From: Akkermansiaceae bacterium
Lineage (GTDB): Bacteria; Verrucomicrobiota; Verrucomicrobiia; Verrucomicrobiales; Akkermansiaceae
Assembly (NCBI GenBank): GCA_015062005.1
Contig: SUVL01000007.1
Coordinates: forward strand, 1-64,000
Direction: 5' to 3'
DNA length: 64,000 nucleotides
The first letter of the stretch is position 1. The number at the start of each line of letters is the position of its first letter. The notes below the pieces were generated by a model, which had not been told where the DNA came from, made no database searches, and worked only from the letters and a program-made list of their open reading frames with translations. Of this stretch, positions 15,702-28,434 are shown in pieces. The position numbers and the translations under genes are program-made.

Positions 15702-16655
15702 ATGCTCATCATCGTCGAAGACCAGCTCGGCACCCGGCTGGACCAGTACCTCGCCGCCCAGCTGCCGGAGCTCTCCCGCGCCCGCATCCAGGCCCTCATC
15801 AAGGAAGGCGAAATCACCGTGAACGGCAAATCCACCAAGGCCAAAACCCCGGTGGAGCGCAGCATGCGCATCGAGGTGAACATCCCCGAGCCCGAACCTG
15901 CCGAAGCCCAGCCGCAGGATATCCCCATCTCCGTGCTCTTCGAGGATAAGCACGTCATCGTCATCGATAAGGAAAGCGGCATGGTGGTACACCCCGCCGC
16001 CGGCAACCCGGATGGCACCCTCGTGAACGCCGTGCTCTTCCACTGTGGCGATTTATCCGGCATCGGCGGCGTGGAGCGCCCCGGCATCGTCCACCGGCTC
16101 GATAAAGACACCAGCGGCTGCATCGTGGTCGCCAAGAACGACCAGGCCCACCTCTCCCTCACCACCCAGTTCGCCGAGCGCGACACCGGAAAAATCTACC
16201 TCGCCGTCGTCCAGGGCTGCCCGAAGGAACCGAAAGGCACCGTCTTCACCAACATTGGCCGCCACCCGGTCAACCGCCTCAAAATGGCCGTGGTGAACCC
16301 CGGCAGCGGCAAACCCGCCATCACCGACTGGGAAGTGCTGCACTACGATGCCGCCACTGATTCCTCGCTCGTCATGTGTACCCTGCACACCGGCCGCACC
16401 CACCAGATACGCGTCCACATGCTGCACCTGGGCCACCCCCTCATCGGCGACCCCATCTACGCCCACCCCCAGCGGCAGAAAGCCAGACCCGGCCGGCTCA
16501 TGCTGCACGCCTGGCGCCTCGCCTTCAACCACCCGGCAGATGGCCGGCGCATCGCCATCCAATCCCCCATTCCGGCGGAGTATACCCCCTGGCTCATCGG
16601 CCACGAGCTCCCCGAGTGGGAAGAAACCCGGACAAATTATTGCTCCGGCAGTTAA
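15702..16655 (+). CDS. RluA-family pseudouridine synthase
   Basis: GIVHRLDKDTSGCIVVAKN, HTGRTHQIRVHMLHLGHPLIGD. Confidence 0.93.
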   Translation: MLIIVEDQLGTRLDQYLAAQLPELSRARIQALIKEGEITVNGKSTKAKTPVERSMRIEVNIPEPEPAEAQPQDIPISVLFEDKHVIVIDKESGMVVHPAAGNPDGTLVNAVLFHCGDLSGIGGVERPGIVHRLDKDTSGCIVVAKNDQAHLSLTTQFAERDTGKIYLAVVQGCPKEPKGTVFTNIGRHPVNRLKMAVVNPGSGKPAITDWEVLHYDAATDSSLVMCTLHTGRTHQIRVHMLHLGHPLIGDPIYAHPQRQKARPGRLMLHAWRLAFNHPADGRRIAIQSPIPAEYTPWLIGHELPEWEETRTNYCSGS

Positions 16656-16685
16656 AGAATATTGCCTTGACGGAACGTCAAATTC
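16632..16685 (+). repeat. dispersed repeat, copy 1 (second copy at 60555-60608)
   Basis: ATTGCTCCGrCArTTAAAGAATATTGCyTTrACGGAACGwCAAAT shared by both loci. Confidence 0.75.
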
Positions 16686-16686
16686 C

Positions 16687-16884
16687 AATCCCTCATGTGC
16701 TAGCATGAGGGATTTCATACATGCCACAGGCATGTATTTCATGCACTGCGATAGCAGTGCTTTCATACCGCTGCTCGCAGCGGTATTTACATACTTGCGA
16801 TAGCAAGTATTTCATTGAGCGACCCGTCTCGGCGTAGCTTTAGCGGAGACAGAAGCGACTAGTTACCGCTGCATTAGCAGCGGT
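16687..16884. repeat. array of perfect short inverted repeats with ATTTCAT-type spacers
   Basis: Palindromes 16687-16714, 16717-16737, 16743-16760, 16765-16786, 16791-16810, 16865-16884. Confidence 0.85.
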
Positions 16885-16889
16885 ACTGC

Positions 16890-17061
16890 CATCGCGCCGG
16901 CAGATGGATGCCGGAAAGCACTCCTTCACAGCCACCGGGCGGTTCAGCTTCTCATCCCACGCGCGGTACAGCACCCCGAACCCGCCGCGCGACGCGGCCG
17001 CCTGCAAGCGATAATGTCCCAGCAGAGTACCGGGCGGCAGCGCATCCACAAGGCCATCCAT
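16890..17061 (-). pseudogene. N-terminal fragment of a serine/threonine protein kinase
   Basis: LLGHYRLQAAASRGGFGVLYRAWDEKLNRPVAVKECFP = Gly-rich loop and VAVKE lysine; rest of kinase absent, tail encoded by hairpin repeat. Confidence 0.75.
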
Positions 17062-18098: not shown

Positions 18099-18821
18099 AT
18101 GACTTGTCCTCTCCCCAAACTGATTCAGCGCCTTATCCGGACACTCATATGTGCTGCTCGCTCACTCCAACGCAGACTTCGCTGGAGTGAAATAAAAAAA
18201 ATCATCGTCTTCCTACAAAGAATGGCAAAAGCAGGGTCGGACGAGTGTCCCATTTCACGGGGCTTCCCGTCAAAGTCTGCTGTGGATGATTTTGATATAT
18301 GCAAACTGAATCCGTTGCCAGAAATAAAAAAAAGTCCCCATCAAAATACCTGTGCCGCTTCCATTTCCGAGCCTCTTGTCCTTCAGCCTGCGACAAATAA
18401 AGGGTTCGAAACTGCCGCGATTTTAGCATTGACTGACTGTATTACAGATTCAAACCTAAAAGAATTAATCAAAGACAGGTTGTCTGAGATTGATGACGAA
18501 ACAGGTAATATTGAAAAGCAGGCACTTTGCGCAGTCAATCTGTACGATGAAATCAACACCTTCATTAGATCATACAAGGGTAAAAACAACGAACAATTAG
18601 AAAAAATTCTTTCCCGGATTCGCTCCGAATTGCGACATCACCATTGCGAGTTAATCGACGAAGATACCTGGAATCCAGAACATCAACGAGCCGTTGCCAT
18701 TGCCTACACTCTTCCAGAAAACAGCACTCCTATAATTTCAGAAAAAAAATCAACAGGATTAATAGTAAACAACCGACTCATCCGCAAACAAGAAGTAACC
18801 CTCCAGAAAAGCAAAATCTAA
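18099..18821 (+). CDS. divergent GrpE-like nucleotide exchange factor
   Basis: C-terminus DTWNPEHQRAVAIAYTLPENSTPIISEKKSTGLIVNNRLIRKQEVTLQKS resembles GrpE FDPxxHEAV...VLQKGYxLNDRVLRPAxVxVxK. Confidence 0.65.
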   Translation: MTCPLPKLIQRLIRTLICAARSLQRRLRWSEIKKIIVFLQRMAKAGSDECPISRGFPSKSAVDDFDICKLNPLPEIKKSPHQNTCAASISEPLVLQPATNKGFETAAILALTDCITDSNLKELIKDRLSEIDDETGNIEKQALCAVNLYDEINTFIRSYKGKNNEQLEKILSRIRSELRHHHCELIDEDTWNPEHQRAVAIAYTLPENSTPIISEKKSTGLIVNNRLIRKQEVTLQKSKI

Positions 18822-18833
18822 GCCCCATACACT

Positions 18834-19727
18834 ATGTTAGATATAGATCCCCTAATCGATTCTCTTCAGGACATCAATGCCCAGGATGTCGCACAAATTA
18901 TTTCAACAGGATACGCCATAGTAGATGCGTTCCAACCGCAATCTACTCTTATCGGCACTCCGGATGTATACGACTGGACGCAGCAGATTATGCCCGATAA
19001 CTGCGCAGTCGAAGCAGAGCGAGCTATTCTCAACCTCTTTACAGACACTCCACTGTCCCAGGTTGAAGCCATGTTCATATCAGCAACAAACGGCTGGTAT
19101 ATGCCAGGGGTGGGAACATCTCCCTCAGATATCGGTCATCTTCTGGAAATGAACGGAATACCTACCCACACCATATATGGTGCAACCATATCAGACCTTG
19201 CCTCAGAGCTATCCATGGGTCATGGCCTGATTGTGGGAGTTGATTCACTGGAACTCTGGGATTCCGGCCCATTATCAGAACTCAAACAGTGGATGAGTCA
19301 CACATGGAATGTGGATTTTGGGGATGTAGCGGCTAATCATGCGGTACTCGTAACAGGAATAGATATCTCCGATCCGTTGGACCCCAAAGTAATTCTCAAT
19401 GATTCAGGCGTACCGAATGGCCAGGGGGTTGCTTATCCGTTGGAAAAGTTCATGCAGGCATGGCAGGATAGTGGTTTCTACTACACGGCTACTGATATTT
19501 CTCTTCCAGACCAGCAAGTTCTGGGTAACCTTAGTGATATGGAAAGTATCATAAACAATCTGAGTATGTTTGCTGGTGGATTTGTCGGAACCTTTGTCGG
19601 GCTGGAAACATTTGCCACGACGGGAGATATCGCGGCCTCAGTCTCTACTGGCGTAAGCTCCGCTAACATGACCATCAATCTGGTTGAAAATCTCTTTTCA
19701 GACGATTCATTTATCTGCGCTCTTTAA
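18834..19727 (+). CDS. C39/papain-like cysteine peptidase with hydrophobic Gly-rich C-terminal segment
   Basis: WTQQIMPDNCAVEAERAILNLF (Q..C), ANHAVLVTGIDI (His), VILNDSG (Asn/Asp); MFAGGFVGTFVGLETFATTGDIAASVSTG. Confidence 0.65.
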   Translation: MLDIDPLIDSLQDINAQDVAQIISTGYAIVDAFQPQSTLIGTPDVYDWTQQIMPDNCAVEAERAILNLFTDTPLSQVEAMFISATNGWYMPGVGTSPSDIGHLLEMNGIPTHTIYGATISDLASELSMGHGLIVGVDSLELWDSGPLSELKQWMSHTWNVDFGDVAANHAVLVTGIDISDPLDPKVILNDSGVPNGQGVAYPLEKFMQAWQDSGFYYTATDISLPDQQVLGNLSDMESIINNLSMFAGGFVGTFVGLETFATTGDIAASVSTGVSSANMTINLVENLFSDDSFICAL

Positions 19728-19750: not shown

Positions 19751-21601
19751 ATGGAACAGTTCACCAATTCTCTGCTCGCCCTTTCCAAATTGCATAGCAA
19801 GCTCACCAATACAGAGGAGAGCGAAGATTTCGTCACCAACATCAAAGCATGGGGTGCGGGCATCTTCCGTCTCATCGTCATGGGTGAAATCAAAAAGGGA
19901 AAATCATCCTTTATTAATGCCTTGCTTGGCGTGAATGAGCTCGTCCCGACCTCATCCGATATAGCCACCTCCACTGTCTACAAAATCCACTATGGCGCTA
20001 AAAGCAGCTACAGAGTGCACTTTGAACCCGAAACCAGGCAGAAGCCGATTGCCATTACAGCCGATGAAGTAGAAGACTATGGCACAGAAAAAGGCAATCC
20101 ACTCAACAAGAAGCACGTGGATTTCATCGAGGTTATCTCCGACGCAGAACTGCTTAAAAGTGGTTTGGTCATCATCGACACCCCCGGGCTCGGCGGACTT
20201 TTCAAAGAACACAAAAAAATCACATGGCAGCACGTGCCTAAAGCGGATGCCGTTTTCTTTGTGACTGATAGTGTTGAGTCTCCCATAGGCATGGAAGAAT
20301 TGGTACATCTTTCCACCGTCCAGAAAATTACTCCGCACATCTTCTTTGTTCAGACCAAAGCGAGCGTGGTCAGTGAAGAAGCCGCAATCGCCAGAAAAAA
20401 CAACAATCTGGAAATCCTTTCCCGCCATTTAAAAGTTAATAGTGCCAGGATTCCATACTTCATCACAGATGCCGTATTAAAGCAAGAATCGGCACAATGT
20501 CAAGATATGGAATTGCTGCAGATGAGCGGTTACCCAGCCCTCCTTCATTTCATGCAGAATGGGCTCATAGCCAAGCAAAGGCAACTCATTAAATCAAAAG
20601 CAATCCGCTATGCTGCCCCCATGCTGGAAGCCCTCCAGGCTGCTCTCTCGCAGCGTAAAGAAATCCTGCAGGCGGATTCCACAGAAAAACAACAGGCTAC
20701 TCAAAAAGCGATAAAACTGGCTCAGGATGAACTCCGCGAATGGCAGCAATCCCGGTTGCCGCAGCTACAGAAGGAAATTAACAGAGGCTTCAAACGCATT
20801 CAGTCAGATTGTGAAGAATACTGTGCCCAGCTCAGACCGAATGGGGAAATGCAGGCATCTCTGGAAAATGAAATCAACAAGGCAACCTCTACCAAGAATC
20901 TTGGTGAGATAATCGCCACCATTCAGGAAAAACTGCCAGAAACCGCTTCTGTCTGCATCACAGAAGTTCAAAAACGATACGACCAGGGAATCAAGCAGCT
21001 ATTCGAAGAACTCACTTCAACAGAAAACACAGAAAGCGAAACTTCTACAGAAATCTCTCAGCAATCTCAGTTTCCAAACACAAATGCCTTCGCCTCAGTA
21101 TTAAAAGGAATAGAAAAGGGGGATGCAAAATGGAATCAGGTTAAATCTATTGCCATGGGTGGCACCATAGGTGGCAATATCGGGGGGCTCATAGGGGGTG
21201 CCATAGGTAGTGTCATTCCCGTCATTGGTACTGCCGTCGGAGGTTTTGTTGGTGCCGCTATCGGTGCTATGTGGGGCGGAGCCGTTGCCAGCGAAGAACG
21301 AGCAGAACATGCTTTGGACTCAGCCAAAATGCAAGCCCGGAACGAACTTGTCAAAAACATTTCCTCTATATATAACAACATCTCATTCACTCTGCGCAAA
21401 CTCAATGAGCGGTATAGTCAGCACGTTGAAGACTCACTCCAGACCGCTCTTACGCAACGCTCTCAAGAGCTTAACAAAGCCTATCAATCAATCGTTGACC
21501 GAAGTAAAATGGATGCAAAGGCTCTCGCAGAGGCAAAGACAGAGCTAAAACAAGATGAGGAACAACTGCATGCCATACTGCGAATTCTGAAAGCACAATA
21601 A
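19751..21601 (+). CDS. dynamin-like GTPase 1 with glycine-zipper membrane segment
   Basis: GEIKKGKSSFINALLG (G1), IIDTPGLGG (G3), FVQTKA (G4-like); GGTIGGNIGGLIGGAIGSVIPVIGTAVGGFVGAAIGAMWGG. Confidence 0.88.
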   Translation: MEQFTNSLLALSKLHSKLTNTEESEDFVTNIKAWGAGIFRLIVMGEIKKGKSSFINALLGVNELVPTSSDIATSTVYKIHYGAKSSYRVHFEPETRQKPIAITADEVEDYGTEKGNPLNKKHVDFIEVISDAELLKSGLVIIDTPGLGGLFKEHKKITWQHVPKADAVFFVTDSVESPIGMEELVHLSTVQKITPHIFFVQTKASVVSEEAAIARKNNNLEILSRHLKVNSARIPYFITDAVLKQESAQCQDMELLQMSGYPALLHFMQNGLIAKQRQLIKSKAIRYAAPMLEALQAALSQRKEILQADSTEKQQATQKAIKLAQDELREWQQSRLPQLQKEINRGFKRIQSDCEEYCAQLRPNGEMQASLENEINKATSTKNLGEIIATIQEKLPETASVCITEVQKRYDQGIKQLFEELTSTENTESETSTEISQQSQFPNTNAFASVLKGIEKGDAKWNQVKSIAMGGTIGGNIGGLIGGAIGSVIPVIGTAVGGFVGAAIGAMWGGAVASEERAEHALDSAKMQARNELVKNISSIYNNISFTLRKLNERYSQHVEDSLQTALTQRSQELNKAYQSIVDRSKMDAKALAEAKTELKQDEEQLHAILRILKAQ

Positions 21602-21613
21602 GGGCATATACAT

Positions 21614-23227
21614 ATGAACACAGAAAGCACACTGGCAGCCAACAGGATACATCTCACCTACAGAGATTCTCTCCTGCAGTTGGCTGATGCCATGGGCAAA
21701 TACGATTTCTTGAACAAAAAAGAGCAAGAGCTGCGTGTGCTGGCTGCTAATCTGCAATCTCCGTTTAATGTAGCTGTTTTCGGCCGCATGAAAACAGGCA
21801 AAAGTACACTTATTAATGCGCTCATCGGCAGGCAACTCGCTATTACCGGGGTAGAAGAGGCAACCGCCACCATCAACCGTATCTCGTACGCCTCCGGAGA
21901 ACAGCTGGATACTTTTACTGTTCACTGGCAGGACACCCAGCCAGAAACTTTCCCCATAGAGCAACTTCAAAAAGATTGGACAGGCAAATCCTCAGATGTG
22001 TTGAACCGGGTTCGACGCGCCGCATGGTTGGAGCTCTTTTCTGATGCTCCAGCATTACGGGATATCCACATCACAGACACCCCCGGTACCGGGGCTGATG
22101 TTGCAGAACACGAAACCATAGCTAAACAATTCATTAACGGTCAAGAGGCTGACGCTTTGCTTTATGTGTTTTCTCCAACAGGAAGAGAAAGCGACGAATC
22201 GGACTTGGAGGCATTCCGCAGCGGATGTCTGCCTGGCTCTTCGTTAGATAACAGCATAGCAGTACTTCATAAATGGGACCACATTTACTGGAATGAAGAT
22301 AACTGGGAGTCTATTGTTTCCAAAGCAAATCGCGTTCACGGTTTTATGCAGGACCTGGTTTCTTGCGTTATCCCCATCAGCGCGCCATTAGGCCTCATTG
22401 CCAAAACAGCTCCTGAATCATTCTGGCAAGACTGCCGGGAACTACTGTCCTCGTTTACCGATGAACTGGCACTCAAACGTGCACTTCTGGCTCATAGTCT
22501 CTGGAAAAGGAATCCTCAACAACTGGCACTTTCTTCAAGGGCTGAACAGCTGGGCTGTCCCTGGAGCAGTTTCTGTGTATTGTTGCGACACCTCTATCGG
22601 AATCCGGGAACAGATGAGGCGAGCGCCATACTGGAGCTTAGCGGCATACTCAGATTAGAACAACTGTTGGATAAACAAATCTTTTCCGTCAGGTCCGTCA
22701 TTCAGCAAAAGCAGAACTGTGCCCGAGCCCGCAAACTGCTGGATGACGTCTACCGGGTCATCAACAGCGAACAGGAAAGGCAACAGGATAACATCAGCAT
22801 GATGGAAAAAATCTACTCCCTGATTGATGAATCTGAAATCGATGCCAGACGATGGCTGGATAACCTGCAGGGAACGGCAAAGTGGCAACATCAGCAGCTG
22901 GCGCAGGACTCTCTCAGTCTGGATAGATTACGCATCCGCATCCGCGATTGGGCAGATGCCATTACCAATGCGCACGACCTCATCCCCTGGCTTAAAGACA
23001 ATGACGGACTCCCGCTTCAACGGGAAGCCGCGGATTTATGCGTACGCATTTTGAAATCGCTTCTTCCCAATGGGGAATCCACAACAGACATTTCACGAGA
23101 AACAATAGTACAACTCCTGCCTGCAATTGCCAGACTTGCGAACCTCCCCTGCGTTTCAGATAAACACAAGGCTGAACGTTTACGCAACTGTCTCATGTAC
23201 TGGGGGTCGCAATCCAATCATTCCTGA
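21614..23227 (+). CDS. dynamin-like GTPase 2
   Basis: VFGRMKTGKSTLINALIG (G1), ITDTPGTGADVAEHE (G3), VLHKWDH (G4). Confidence 0.85.
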   Translation: MNTESTLAANRIHLTYRDSLLQLADAMGKYDFLNKKEQELRVLAANLQSPFNVAVFGRMKTGKSTLINALIGRQLAITGVEEATATINRISYASGEQLDTFTVHWQDTQPETFPIEQLQKDWTGKSSDVLNRVRRAAWLELFSDAPALRDIHITDTPGTGADVAEHETIAKQFINGQEADALLYVFSPTGRESDESDLEAFRSGCLPGSSLDNSIAVLHKWDHIYWNEDNWESIVSKANRVHGFMQDLVSCVIPISAPLGLIAKTAPESFWQDCRELLSSFTDELALKRALLAHSLWKRNPQQLALSSRAEQLGCPWSSFCVLLRHLYRNPGTDEASAILELSGILRLEQLLDKQIFSVRSVIQQKQNCARARKLLDDVYRVINSEQERQQDNISMMEKIYSLIDESEIDARRWLDNLQGTAKWQHQQLAQDSLSLDRLRIRIRDWADAITNAHDLIPWLKDNDGLPLQREAADLCVRILKSLLPNGESTTDISRETIVQLLPAIARLANLPCVSDKHKAERLRNCLMYWGSQSNHS

Positions 23228-23231
23228 CACC

Positions 23232-25460
23232 ATGAACACCCACGCCATCGGTATCGACTTCGGCACCAGCAAAACGCTGGTCAGCCACATTAATCCCCAG
23301 ACAGGGCATCCCGAAACCATCCGGCTCGGCCGCGGTGGAGATTTGATTCCTACCACAATCTTTATCGATTCTGCCGGGCGTTTTTCTTTCGGGGACGACG
23401 CCGATGATATGATTGAAGATATTTCCGGCACCTACCTGCGGGGGGTCAAAATGCAGCTGGGGTCTGATACCCCTGTTCACATGTATCTGGCTTCCAATGG
23501 AGATTGCAGGCAATTAACAGCTAAAGACCTGGTAAGGGAATATCTGCTCTATATCCGGCAACAGGTGGAAAAACTGGTTTACCAGGGAGAATCGGTCACC
23601 AGGGCTACCATCACCCGTCCTGTCAATTTCTCGCCAGCCCAGTGTCAGGAACTGCAACAGGCGGCGATTGCCGCCGGCTTTAAGCATGTGGAGTTCACTA
23701 CCGAACCGGAAGCCGCCGGCCTTGCCTATTGCAGGCTCAACGCAGCCCATGCCTTTGCCAGAAATGCGCTGGTGGTCGACTGGGGTGGCGGTACGCTCGA
23801 TTTTGCGCTCGTCACCCGTAGTCACGATTCTGTCAGAACTCATGGGCACCTGACAGATGGTGATATGGAAATGGGCGGCGAGAAGTTCGATGAAATACTG
23901 TGGAACTATGCAGTAGAATCGCTGAAAAGCCATGGTGTAACCACCCTGAATCCAGTTTCTCAATTACCAAGGGTTCGCAGAAGCAAAGAGTTGCTCAGCT
24001 CTCGACAGGAAGTCATCCTGCGACTGAGCCAGGAAAACGGGGCCTGTCCACCGTTGGCGCTCAGCCGAGAGACCTTCAACCTCATGATTGCTGCCTATAT
24101 TGACAAGGCTGCACAGAAACTCCACAGTTTATTATCGCGCATACCCTCAGAACACCAGCCCGAGATGTTGCTCCTCGTAGGCGGTAGCAGCCAGATTCCG
24201 CTGATTAAGGAAAAGCTGGAGGAGGCATGCGGGCTTCCTGCCTACATGTGGCACTACTCCCGCGAAGCTGTGGCACTTGGAGCTGCGTTGTGGAGCTATG
24301 TTCCACCTACTCCCGAAGAGAAGATTCAACATGAAAGGAATAAGGCTAGAATCGAATTGAACAGGAGAGGAATCGAACCAGATGAGTACGATACAAATCT
24401 GCTTCGTGCGGCAGGGAAAGGCGACATTGCTTTCATTCAATTGCTCCTTTCCGCTGGGACTGATATTAACGCCACCGGTAATAATCTCGAAACCGCTCTA
24501 TATGAAGCTGTATATTCCGGGAACATGGAGTGCATAGTATTTCTGACTGAAATCAATGATATTGATATCAACAAAGCGGATAATACAGGTTGTACTCCAC
24601 TCATACTGGCTGCCGCGTCAGGCAATACACAGTGTGTTGATTTACTTCTCTCTAAACCTGATATAAAAGTAAACCAAACGGACAATCATGGACGGAGTGC
24701 CCTTTTCGTAGCATGCCAGACAGGGCACGCAGAATGTGTCAAGAAATTGGTTTCGGCAAAAGGAATAAACGTAAACCTCCAGACAGAAAACAAACTTTCT
24801 CCGCTTCATATTGCCACATACCTGTGCCATTCAGAGTGTGTCCGGGAATTGCTTGCAGCTCCACACATACAAGTTAATCTTCCAGAAGAATCGGGGGGAA
24901 CTCCCCTCATCCTGTTAATGATGCCAAATGAGGAAACAAAGCAGCAGAATAAGCTCGAATGCTTACGAACCTTACTTCAATGTGCTGAAGTCAACATCAA
25001 CGCTACCGCTTACAATGGGAACACTCCACTCGTTATAGCCGCAATGTCAGGGTATCACCTTCTTGTTCGGGAGCTTTGTAAAACACAGCACATTGACATC
25101 AACAAAAAAGGCAATAATGATACCACAGCCCTTGGTGCCGCCATTTTGGCTAATCATGTTAAATGCGTGTCTGAATTACTTCAAGCACCAGCGATTAACG
25201 TCAACTTAAAGTGCAATGATTGCACCCCCCTCTACATTGCAGAACAAATGGGGCACAATGAATGCGCAGATTTGCTCCGTGCTAAACTTAACTCTGAAAA
25301 ACAAGCGCATCAACAACAGCCGACACCTTCTCAACCTCAAAGAAGGCCCAGCGGTTCAGACTTGGCAGGCTGTAGTTCTGAGTTTGCAGGCTGTTTGAAA
25401 TGGATAGCGTGGGGCTTTCTTCTGCACTTACCCATGTGGCTTATGAAATCATGTGACTAA
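23232..25460 (+). CDS. Hsp70-type ATPase domain fused to ankyrin repeats and C-terminal hydrophobic tail
   Basis: AIGIDFGTSKTLVSH, LVVDWGGGTLDFALV, LLLVGGSSQIPLI; repeated GxTPLxxAAxxGxxxCVxxLL units. Confidence 0.9.
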   Translation: MNTHAIGIDFGTSKTLVSHINPQTGHPETIRLGRGGDLIPTTIFIDSAGRFSFGDDADDMIEDISGTYLRGVKMQLGSDTPVHMYLASNGDCRQLTAKDLVREYLLYIRQQVEKLVYQGESVTRATITRPVNFSPAQCQELQQAAIAAGFKHVEFTTEPEAAGLAYCRLNAAHAFARNALVVDWGGGTLDFALVTRSHDSVRTHGHLTDGDMEMGGEKFDEILWNYAVESLKSHGVTTLNPVSQLPRVRRSKELLSSRQEVILRLSQENGACPPLALSRETFNLMIAAYIDKAAQKLHSLLSRIPSEHQPEMLLLVGGSSQIPLIKEKLEEACGLPAYMWHYSREAVALGAALWSYVPPTPEEKIQHERNKARIELNRRGIEPDEYDTNLLRAAGKGDIAFIQLLLSAGTDINATGNNLETALYEAVYSGNMECIVFLTEINDIDINKADNTGCTPLILAAASGNTQCVDLLLSKPDIKVNQTDNHGRSALFVACQTGHAECVKKLVSAKGINVNLQTENKLSPLHIATYLCHSECVRELLAAPHIQVNLPEESGGTPLILLMMPNEETKQQNKLECLRTLLQCAEVNINATAYNGNTPLVIAAMSGYHLLVRELCKTQHIDINKKGNNDTTALGAAILANHVKCVSELLQAPAINVNLKCNDCTPLYIAEQMGHNECADLLRAKLNSEKQAHQQQPTPSQPQRRPSGSDLAGCSSEFAGCLKWIAWGFLLHLPMWLMKSCD

Positions 25461-25532
25461 ATCTACATAACAATAAACTCAGGCAACTCTTGGAAATTGT
25501 CGCATATTTTTCACTACGAATAAAAAATCATT

Positions 25533-27677
25533 ATGCATTCCCACGCCATCGGTATAGACTTCGGCACCAGCAAAACGCTGGTCAGCCACATTAATCCCCA
25601 GACAGGGCATCCCGAAACCATCCGGCTCGGCCGCGGTGGAGATTTGATTCCTACCACAATCTTTATCGATTCTGACGGGCGTTTTTCTTTCGGGGACGAC
25701 GCCGATGATATGATTGAAGATATTTCCGGCACCTACCTGCGGGGATTCAAGATGCAGCTGGGGTCTGATACCCCTGTTCACATGTATCTGGCTCCCAATG
25801 GAGATTTCAGGCAATTGACTGCTAAAGACTTGGTAAGGGAATATCTGCTCTATATCCGGCAACAAGTAAAAAAACTGGTTTACCAGGGAGAACCAGTCAC
25901 CAGAGCCACCATCACCCGTCCCGTCAATTTCTCTCCCGCCCAGTGTCAGGAACTGCAACAGGCGGCGCTTGCCGCTGGCTTTGAGCATGTGGAGTTCACT
26001 ACCGAACCGGAAGCCGCAGGCCTTGCCTATTGCAGGCTCAATGCAGCCCACGCCTTTGCCAGAAATGCGCTTGTTGTCGACTGGGGTGGCGGTACTCTGG
26101 ATTTTGCGCTCGTCACCCGTAGTCACGATTCTGTAAGAACTCATGGGCACCTGACAGATGGTGATATGGAAATGGGCGGCGAAAAGTTCGATGAAATACT
26201 GTGGAACTATGCAGTAGAATCGCTGAAAAGCCATGGTGTAACCACCCTGAATCCAGTTTCTCAATTACCAAGGGTTCGCAGAAGCAAGGAGTTGCTCAGC
26301 TCACGACAGGAAGTCGCCCTGCGACTGAGCCATGAAAACGGTGCTTGCCCACCGTTGGAGCTCAGCCGAGAGACCTTCAACAGCATGATTGCAGCCTACA
26401 TTGACAAGGCTGCGCAAAAACTCCACGGGTTATTATCACGCATTCCCGCAGAACACCAGCCTGAGATGCTGCTTCTCGTAGGCGGCAGCAGTCAGATTCC
26501 GCTGATTAAGGAAACGCTGGAGGAGGCATGCGGGCTTCCTGCCTACATGTGGCACTACTCCCGCGAAGCCGTCGCGCTGGGAGCGGCTTTGTGGAATCAT
26601 GTTGAACAGAAACCAGCGGCTCCTAAGACGGAATCAAAGGCAGACAGAATTAAATTGATTAGTTCTGGAAATAATAAAATTGCGGTCATTAATACATTGC
26701 GCGATATTTACCCCCAGCTGGGACTTGCTGATGCAAAACAACTGGTTGAATCCGCCCCTGTCATTCTTCCTGATAAAACGGAAATGAACCCTTGTGTTGC
26801 AGCTGGCATGCTGGAACGCGCAGGCTGTAAAGTTAAGATTCTTTCAAAAGCTGAAGAATACGAACCTGAACAACACGAGTCTCTTTATAATAATATATCA
26901 GGAGTATGGGAAGGCTCGTGCACAAACCTCTCCGCAGGCGGCATAACCGCCCCTATAATGCTGGTTCTCGACACCAAAGCCCAGAAAATTACCGGAAATC
27001 TTGTGATAGGCGGTACTGAGCTAGTTGGAAGTGGAAAAATCACTGGACAAATCATCGGTAACTCCATAACTTTTCAATCCCCAGGCGACAACATCCACTT
27101 CTCTCAAATAACATGGAGGGGAACTGCATCCAATAATGTTATTGAGGGAACTTATGTCGTAGAGCCAAAGAATATATTCATTAAACCACAACATGGACTA
27201 TTCCGTACATCAAAACAAGAAAGGCAGAAGGGGACAAAGTCAGGCAGACTCAAATTGCTCAGCTTTGGAAATAATAAAATTGCGGTCATTAAGACATTGC
27301 GCGATATTTACCCCCATCTGGGACTTGCTGATGCAAAACAACTGGTTGAATCCGCCCCTGTCATTCTTCCTGATAAAACGGAAATGAACCCTTGTGTTGC
27401 AGCTGGCATGCTGGAACGCACAGGCTGTAAAGTTAAGATTCTTTCAAAAGATGAAGAATACGAAGGAGAACAAAAGGACACGCAGTTTGATAACGAATCA
27501 GGAACAAATGAAGGTTCCTGCACAAACCACCCCGCCGCTCAGGCTCCCACACACATCCCCCAACCAACGCATGAGCCTGCGGCTCCGCCAAAATCTGGAG
27601 GTTCATCAGATGACTCGGGATGTTGGAAAATTGTCTTTATAATCATAGCCATCGTTCTTATGTGTGCTTGCGGTTAA
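25533..27677 (+). CDS. Hsp70-type ATPase domain fused to two ribosomal L7/L12-CTD-like domains, a beta-rich middle region and a C-terminal TM
   Basis: NBD near-identical to previous gene; NNKIAVINTLRDIYPQLGLADAKQLVESAPVIL...GCKVKIL twice; CWKIVFIIIAIVLMCACG tail. Confidence 0.9.
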   Translation: MHSHAIGIDFGTSKTLVSHINPQTGHPETIRLGRGGDLIPTTIFIDSDGRFSFGDDADDMIEDISGTYLRGFKMQLGSDTPVHMYLAPNGDFRQLTAKDLVREYLLYIRQQVKKLVYQGEPVTRATITRPVNFSPAQCQELQQAALAAGFEHVEFTTEPEAAGLAYCRLNAAHAFARNALVVDWGGGTLDFALVTRSHDSVRTHGHLTDGDMEMGGEKFDEILWNYAVESLKSHGVTTLNPVSQLPRVRRSKELLSSRQEVALRLSHENGACPPLELSRETFNSMIAAYIDKAAQKLHGLLSRIPAEHQPEMLLLVGGSSQIPLIKETLEEACGLPAYMWHYSREAVALGAALWNHVEQKPAAPKTESKADRIKLISSGNNKIAVINTLRDIYPQLGLADAKQLVESAPVILPDKTEMNPCVAAGMLERAGCKVKILSKAEEYEPEQHESLYNNISGVWEGSCTNLSAGGITAPIMLVLDTKAQKITGNLVIGGTELVGSGKITGQIIGNSITFQSPGDNIHFSQITWRGTASNNVIEGTYVVEPKNIFIKPQHGLFRTSKQERQKGTKSGRLKLLSFGNNKIAVIKTLRDIYPHLGLADAKQLVESAPVILPDKTEMNPCVAAGMLERTGCKVKILSKDEEYEGEQKDTQFDNESGTNEGSCTNHPAAQAPTHIPQPTHEPAAPPKSGGSSDDSGCWKIVFIIIAIVLMCACG

Positions 27678-27709
27678 TTTTATCCAATACCAGATACTAT
27701 ATAAACTGC

Positions 27710-28135
27710 ATGAAACACCGCACTAGAAAGAGTCTTTATTTACACATTGCAACGTGCAGTACCGTCATTGCATGCTATTTAATCAACAAGTTCATCCTTT
27801 CAAACATTATAATACTGAAATGCTACTTCAATGATTTATTGTGTGGATTTGGTTTCTATTCCTTCATCTACACTAGCTATTACCTCGTTTCCGGGAAAGA
27901 GCCACCTAAAACGATTGACCACTTCTCCGGCATTCTTTGCCTAATATCCTTGGCATCTCTATTCTGGGAATATGTAGCTCCTCTATACATCAAAAGTTCC
28001 ACATCAGATTGTTATGATGTTATCTGCTATATGAGTGGCTGTTGCGTTTTTCTCATTCTACGTCTTATCGCAATATCCGAGTATCGAACTATAAAATTCA
28101 TACATACAGGACGCATACCTTCCCGTAGCCGATGA
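27710..28135 (+). CDS. small multi-TM membrane protein
   Basis: In-frame ATG within the 27620 ORF; several hydrophobic helices; 32 bp after previous stop. Confidence 0.6.
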   Translation: MKHRTRKSLYLHIATCSTVIACYLINKFILSNIIILKCYFNDLLCGFGFYSFIYTSYYLVSGKEPPKTIDHFSGILCLISLASLFWEYVAPLYIKSSTSDCYDVICYMSGCCVFLILRLIAISEYRTIKFIHTGRIPSRSR

Positions 28136-28279: not shown

Positions 28280-28400
28280 TTTGAAGTACGAAGGTAAGCA
28301 TCAATTTGTCGAGCTCTTTACTCCAACATTGGGACACATGCAGGGATTTTGCCGCAAGAGCAAGGTAACGATGATGCAAGCAATGGCAATATCAAATGCA

Positions 28401-28434
28401 AACCGGCCCGCATGCTTAGGCATGCAGGCCGGTT
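28401..28434 (-). terminator. terminator-like hairpin after rpsD
   Basis: AACCGGCC-TGCATGC-CTAA-GCATGCG-GGCCGGTT on minus strand. Confidence 0.6.

What the first reader, a model, noticed from the sequence alone, without database searches (positions are those of the whole stretch)
23232..26590. Two Hsp70 paralogues with constant ATPase domain and swapped C-termini, no canonical substrate-binding domain
The first ~350 codons of the two genes are almost identical at DNA level; they diverge abruptly after YMWHYSREAVALGAALW into ankyrin repeats plus hydrophobic tail versus L12-like domains plus TM. A constant N-terminus with exchanged C-termini suggests recent duplication or gene conversion and modular diversification, as in polymorphic recognition systems. 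Neither shows the usual Hsp70 beta-sandwich SBD.
Basis: seen in the sequence. Interest (0 to 1): 0.8.

Follow-up and report, generated by a model that had tools for sequence, protein, structure and literature searches.

The report
Hsp70 motors with swappable tails
Gut bacteria of the genus Akkermansia carry families of proteins that keep the ATP-driven motor of the chaperone Hsp70 but replace its substrate-binding half with ever-changing tails, beside one shared set of genes for a GrpE-like cofactor, a papain-like protease and two membrane-remodelling dynamins, which looks like an undescribed modular sensing or defence machine.

Summary
Two adjacent genes (23232-25460, 25533-27677) share an Hsp70 ATPase domain (353 codons, 93.7% DNA, 95% protein identity) and then have unrelated C-termini: ankyrin repeats in one, two L7/L12-CTD domains plus a membrane helix in the other. 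No Hsp70 substrate-binding domain is detectable. They end a conserved operon: GrpE-like exchange factor, C39/papain-like peptidase, paired dynamins, then one to four Hsp70 'arms'. In Akkermansia 20 of 76 genomes have such Hsp70s; one has 11. Of 72 within-genome pairs 50 have no C-terminal similarity. Tails include ankyrin, Sel1, TPR, L12, LysM, zinc-ribbon, DUF805, DnaJ-C and TM modules, with direct evidence of module insertion and tail sharing. A dynamin core stays single in the multi-arm genomes tested. Similar gene sets occur in Bacteroidota, Planctomycetota, Streptomyces, Cyanobacteria, Clostridia and Proteobacteria. I found no paper describing the system; the nearest are DO-GTPase/Hsp70 conflict systems and LeoABC dynamins. 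Best model: a common NTPase/protease core addressed by exchangeable Hsp70-driven sensor or adaptor arms, probably in phage or envelope-stress defence. Architecture and exchange are shown; function is inferred.

The parts
18099..18821 (+). GrpE-like nucleotide exchange factor gene (240 aa)
   Evidence: AlphaFold model, last ~140 residues at pLDDT >92; Foldseek top 11 PDB matches are all GrpE, best 1dkg_B E 8e-5, prob 1.00; a homologue at L112 hits Pfam GrpE PF01025 at 1.9e-5; family alignment
18834..19727 (+). C39/papain-like cysteine peptidase gene (297 aa); candidate active site Q51-C57-H169-N189/D190
   Evidence: 14-member alignment with Q51, C57, H169, N189 invariant; all 14 hit PF13529 Peptidase_C39_2, best 1.9e-8, window protein itself only 0.06; other homologues above the Pfam cutoff
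19751..21601 (+). dynamin-like GTPase A (616 aa)
   Evidence: Pfam Dynamin_N 2.7e-19; PADLOC LeoBC 3e-24
21614..23227 (+). dynamin-like GTPase B (537 aa)
   Evidence: Pfam Dynamin_N 2.1e-18; PADLOC LeoBC/LeoA
23232..24290 (+). HspA: Hsp70 nucleotide-binding domain
   Evidence: Pfam HSP70 4.2e-30, profile 99-373/599; catalytic motifs DFGT, K73, E158, DWGGGTLD, GG317-318 invariant among relatives
24291..25460 (+). HspA: variable C-terminus, ankyrin repeats from about 24399, hydrophobic tail
   Evidence: Pfam Ank_2 1.3e-51 on the C-terminus alone, no Hsp70 match
25533..26591 (+). HspB: Hsp70 nucleotide-binding domain, 95% identical to that of HspA
   Evidence: phmmer to DnaK chains 8e-25; structure model
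26619..26840 (+). HspB: first L7/L12 C-terminal-domain-like module
   Evidence: Pfam Ribosomal_L12 two stretches, 7.6e-22; TIGR00855 at 363-436
26889..27242 (+). HspB: middle region between the L12 modules, no assignable family
   Evidence: no significant Pfam match; pLDDT <40 in the model
27252..27440 (+). HspB: second L7/L12 module, internal duplicate of the first
   Evidence: 91% DNA identity to the first over 246 bp
27618..27674 (+). HspB: C-terminal transmembrane helix
   Evidence: hydropathy 2.36 at residues 696-714
24267..24287 (+). recombination boundary in HspA: codons 346-352, protein identical, codons nearly all changed
26568..26588 (+). recombination boundary in HspB (codons 346-352)

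Best explanation
A multigene 'one core, many arms' system. The core is a GrpE-like exchange factor, a C39/papain-like peptidase and a heteromeric dynamin pair. The arms are proteins with an intact Hsp70 ATPase switch whose substrate-binding domain has been replaced by exchangeable binding, scaffold or membrane modules. Proposed working: the variable tail binds a particular target or membrane site; ATP hydrolysis and GrpE-driven exchange by the constant NBD turn binding into a conformational signal that is read by the common core; the core's output is dynamin-driven membrane remodelling, gated by or accompanied by proteolysis. The most likely purpose is defence against phage or other envelope damage. 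Shown here: gene content and order, intact motifs, GrpE fold, lack of an SBD, NBD homogenisation, exchange of tail modules, arms outnumbering a single dynamin core, patchy distribution. Inferred: target sensing, physical coupling of arms to core, the role of the peptidase, and defence. Confidence is about 0.95 for the architecture and modular exchange and about 0.45 for the sensor-arm defence mechanism; the score given is for the mechanism.
For: Conserved order GrpE-like/C39/DynA/DynB/Hsp70 arm(s) in most of the Akkermansia core loci and most parts of it in distant phyla (by my count 35 of 65 C39 loci also show a dynamin and an Hsp70 NBD, 50 show a dynamin), also on a cyanobacterial plasmid annotated C39 peptidase, two dynamin family proteins and Hsp70. 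NBD under purifying selection, dN/dS about 0.11. 50 of 72 within-genome pairs have no C-terminal similarity; at least 13 changes of tail class among 30 labelled NBDs; DnaJ_C module insertion and shared-tail pair. One DynA per genome in G193, G190 and G046 although they hold 11, 3 and 6 Hsp70 NBD matches. Presence in 20 of 76 congeners and absence of DynA from the close relatives G204 and G219. Tail types (Ank, Sel1/TPR, FGE-sulfatase, zinc-ribbon/TM) resemble scaffold and sensor modules of the conflict systems described in PMC7159879. A dynamin-like protein protects against phage in Bacillus (PMC8844932).
Against: No functional data. Flanking genes were not rich in known defence families (two hits among 10 flanking proteins). 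No recognisable toxin or nuclease effector. Orphan arms far from the core may work independently of it. Some arms (G234/G237, G222/G223) keep long colinear tails between species, which fits conserved adaptors as well as diversifying sensors.
Confidence: 0.45

Rival explanations
1. Housekeeping membrane-remodelling machine: the Hsp70 NBD, with its GrpE, assembles or strips dynamin coats, much as Hsc70/auxilin uncoats clathrin, and the various tails are adaptors that place this activity at different cell sites (membrane, peptidoglycan, ribosome). Not a defence system.
For: GrpE-like partner and intact ATPase motifs; TM, LysM and zinc-ribbon tails could tether; a DnaJ protein or DnaJ_C module appears in some loci.
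Against: Patchy presence, absent from close relatives and fast turnover of tails are unusual for housekeeping; the papain-like peptidase has no obvious place in it.
Confidence: 0.27
2. Effector arms: the tails are the deployed weapons and the core regulates or releases them, the C39 peptidase cutting the tail off the NBD at the junction.
For: Constant N-terminus, variable C-terminus and a linked peptidase are the layout of polymorphic effectors; orphan arms exist.
Against: No toxin domain in the roughly 40 tails scanned; most are repeats or tethers; no dedicated immunity genes seen beside arms.
Confidence: 0.1
3. Plain duplication: recent tandem duplication followed by chance fusion of unrelated sequences, without a common function.
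For: The two window NBDs are sisters with full support; duplications inside HspB.
Against: Recurrent tail change at the same junction in many genomes, strong conservation of operon order and of NBD motifs, dN/dS about 0.11.
Confidence: 0.07
4. Assembly artefact of repeated sequence in metagenome-assembled genomes.
For: Window genome is in 51 contigs.
Against: Tandem arms with different tails also occur in the single-contig genome G085 and in many independent assemblies.
Confidence: 0.01

Closest known systems
DO-GTPase / GAP1-N2 conflict systems (Kaur et al. 2020, PMC7159879)
   Same: GTPase pair with HSP70 and GrpE, some with a second HSP70 protein lacking the peptide-binding domain; variable repeat and scaffold partners
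   Different: There the GTPases are a separate TRAFAC family with GAP1 and FNIII proteins and the word dynamin does not occur; here the GTPases are dynamins, with a C39 peptidase, and the variability is fused to the Hsp70 NBD itself
LeoABC bacterial dynamins (PMC4159319)
   Same: tandem dynamin-like GTPases; best PADLOC matches of both window GTPases
   Different: the LeoABC paper mentions no Hsp70, chaperone or DnaK
Canonical DnaK-DnaJ-GrpE chaperone
   Same: NBD motifs, GrpE-like partner, occasional DnaJ parts
   Different: no interdomain linker or SBD; tails are swapped; dynamins and peptidase instead of chaperone genes
Polymorphic toxin or Rhs-type constant/variable proteins
   Same: constant N-terminal part joined to exchangeable C-terminal part, orphan copies
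   Different: no toxin domains, no immunity genes, N-terminus is an ATPase switch

Membership tests
Hsp70 (DnaK-type chaperone) | actin-like nucleotide-binding domain with phosphate and adenosine motifs | tested here: met
Hsp70 (DnaK-type chaperone) | interdomain linker and beta-sandwich substrate-binding domain | tested here: not met
   Pfam match ends at profile 373-375/599; no match in the C-termini at E<=1; confident model ends at residue 354
Hsp70 (DnaK-type chaperone) | GrpE-type exchange factor | tested here: met
Hsp70 (DnaK-type chaperone) | J-domain partner | tested here: inconclusive
   no J-domain protein seen in the window operon; J-domain protein at L094 and DnaJ_C fused to an arm at L063
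Bacterial dynamin pair (Leo-type) | two adjacent Dynamin_N GTPases | tested here: met
Bacterial dynamin pair (Leo-type) | membrane binding and GTP-driven oligomerisation | not testable with these tools
   needs biochemistry
DO-GTPase/GAP1 conflict systems | GTPases of the DO-GTPase family | tested here: not met
   Pfam, which holds a DO-GTPase1 model (listed), gives Dynamin_N and not DO-GTPase for both window GTPases
DO-GTPase/GAP1 conflict systems | GAP1 protein in the operon | tested here: inconclusive
   Pfam scans of the window operon genes gave no GAP1 match, but I did not verify that Pfam holds a GAP1 model
DO-GTPase/GAP1 conflict systems | HSP70 sans peptide-binding domain with GrpE | tested here: met
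C39/papain-like peptidases | oxyanion Q, catalytic C, H, N/D | tested here: met
   Q51, C57, H169, N189 invariant in 14 members
Polymorphic toxins | toxin domain at the C-terminus with adjacent immunity gene | tested here: not met

The most novel reading that the evidence does not exclude
A bacterial innate-immunity-like repertoire in which the Hsp70 ATPase switch, not a STAND or NACHT NTPase, carries exchangeable recognition tails. NBDs kept alike by recombination allow tails to be traded, so that one genome can hold ten or more receptor arms feeding a single dynamin/peptidase output.
Probability: 0.3. Interest if true: 0.92.

Novelty: new variant of a known kind. Interest (0 to 1): 0.76.

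Why it matters
It would show Hsp70, the archetypal chaperone, reused as the switch of a diversifying receptor or adaptor family, and would give bacterial dynamin pairs a candidate regulator. It is widespread (several phyla) and lives in a major human gut genus, yet I found no paper describing it. The single-core, many-arm layout makes the sensor hypothesis testable by swapping tails in laboratory strains.

Tried and rejected
PDB profile searches with the GrpE-like and peptidase alignments gave nothing; structure prediction solved the first. Pfam on the Akkermansia GrpE-like members gave no GrpE hit. GC-biased conversion as the cause of NBD GC exceeding tail GC was tested and not supported: the step is seen in 30 of 41 genes (P=0.0003) but is no larger in multi-copy genomes (P=0.94). 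An empty site beside rpsD could not be closed: homology with G204/G219 ends just downstream of rpsD (28390-28401) and the left flank lies on another contig in G204. Defence-island context: little support. Peptidase homologue in phages: none at E<=1e-3. Literature searches for dynamin + Hsp70 + GrpE or C39 found no description. The label parsimony uses Pfam-visible modules only, so tails without Pfam hits were left out.
Full report
OBSERVATION. Genes HspA (23232-25460, 742 aa) and HspB (25533-27677, 714 aa) share an ungapped 353-codon N-terminal domain with 67 nucleotide differences (93.7% identity), then diverge to background. HspA continues with ankyrin repeats, HspB with two ribosomal L7/L12 C-terminal-type domains and a TM helix. 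Pfam HSP70 stops at profile position 373-375 of 599, and the C-termini searched alone give no Hsp70 match. The HspB model gives a confident NBD (pLDDT mostly about 90, to residue 354) and nothing confident after it except parts of the L12 modules; its best PDB matches are DnaK NBDs.

THE JUNCTION. dN is about 0.025 and dS about 0.22 (ratio about 0.11), with dS rising along the domain, 0.12, 0.22, 0.33 by thirds. Codons 346-352 still encode identical residues, but six of the seven differ synonymously (P=2e-5 against the 45 synonymous differences spread over 353 codons). So the DNA-level tract ends before the protein-level junction. This is the mark of recombination or gene conversion inside the NBD rather than a simple duplication with a later tail replacement; a crossover with another family member that brought its own NBD end and tail would look the same. 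That choice is inference.

THE OPERON. Upstream lie two dynamin-like GTPases (Dynamin_N), a C39/papain-like peptidase with invariant Q51, C57, H169 and N189 in 14 relatives, and a protein whose model matches GrpE: the first 11 PDB hits are all GrpE chains. The order GrpE-like/C39/DynA/DynB/Hsp70 arm(s) recurs in most core loci of the genus, which is Akkermansia by the matching contigs. Operon G+C is 42-49% against 58% for the window; the NBDs are 54% and the tails 44%.

DIVERSITY OF TAILS. In the genus 20 of 76 genomes hold relatives at E<=1e-30, with up to 11 copies in one genome. Tails found: ankyrin, Sel1, L12, LysM, DUF805, zinc ribbons, DnaJ_C with its zinc finger, TPR, TM segments. Outside the genus: LGFP repeats, TPR, beta-helix, FGE-sulfatase. 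Of 72 within-genome pairs, 50 have no C-terminal similarity at E<=1e-3. Pairs with highly similar NBDs and different tails: window 95%, G226 82%. Direct module events: L063 and L073 have NBDs 89% identical and tails 64% identical, but L063 holds an extra block of about 244 residues containing DnaJ_C and its zinc finger exactly at the junction. Two arms of G226 share the NBD (64%) and the last 56 residues (71%) with unrelated middles. The L12 module lies next to the NBD in HspB and G214 but behind ankyrins in G226. Tail class changes at least 13 times on the NBD tree among 30 labelled genes. Some pairs keep colinear tails (G222/G223), so turnover is fast but not universal.

ONE CORE, MANY ARMS. 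G193, G190 and G046 have a single DynA each although they hold 11, 3 and 6 Hsp70 NBD matches. In G193 and G190 the arms found are on other contigs than the dynamin core, so arms appear dispersed, within the limits of draft assemblies. The close relatives G204 and G219 (RpsD 100% identical) lack DynA.

BREADTH. A scan of 84,980 species genomes with the peptidase gave 65 loci; 35 also show a dynamin and an Hsp70 NBD with Akkermansia-built profiles, 50 show a dynamin (my count). They include Bacteroidales, Planctomycetota, Streptomyces, Desulfosarcina and gammaproteobacterial symbionts; several carry sigma-factor-like genes in front (Pfam Sigma70_r4_2 for one). A plasmid of Anabaena sp. 90 has Hsp70, C39 peptidase and two dynamins annotated together near an integrase. 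In a sample of 387 genomes of the phylum 12 had the peptidase, so presence is patchy.

MECHANISM. Conserved NBD motifs and a dedicated GrpE-like protein imply an ATP-driven switch. Without an SBD the switch must act on the tail or on partners. I think the tails choose the target or site, and the common dynamin/peptidase core gives the output. That the two are physically coupled is inference from operon conservation. Defence is suggested by patchiness, diversification, Leo-type dynamin matches and the likeness to the conflict systems of PMC7159879; the phage-protective role of a dynamin-like protein in Bacillus (PMC8844932) is a precedent. A coat-disassembly or trafficking role is the main rival.

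COMPARISON. [quoted passage not shown] the GTPase family, the peptidase and the fusion of variability to the Hsp70 NBD differ (one search finds no dynamin in that paper). I therefore call it a new variant of a known kind. Absence of a published description is limited to the open-access library searched.

LIMITS.

Noticed in passing
16635-16890: Dispersed repeat: pieces of this stretch match dozens of places in the related genome G204 and many in G219; possible short mobile or intergenic repeat family next to the left border of the operon region.
   Followed up: no
27620-28135: Small ORF overlapping the 3' end of HspB on the + strand, hydrophobic, no family hit; may be a membrane protein or chance.
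   Followed up: no
26643-27486: Internal duplication of the L12 module in HspB (91% DNA identity) extends past the domain into an EGSCTN motif, suggesting recent intragenic duplication.
   Followed up: partly
L046:10490-12052: Arm in G046 with two Hsp70 NBDs fused in one reading frame with only a short spacer; cut by the contig end.
   Followed up: no
L094:5854-8268 and L094:233-1036: Kuenenia-like locus with an Hsp70 NBD fused to an FGE-sulfatase domain and a DnaJ/TM/zinc-ribbon protein upstream.
   Followed up: partly
L112:654-1256, L105:8881-9489, L122:2321-3082: Sigma-factor-like genes directly in front of the C39 peptidase in Sunxiuqinia, Xenococcus and Desulfosarcina loci (Pfam Sigma70_r4_2 for the first).
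   Followed up: no
window genome G000: No full-length canonical DnaK was found in this assembly; probably missing contigs in a 92% complete genome.
   Followed up: no
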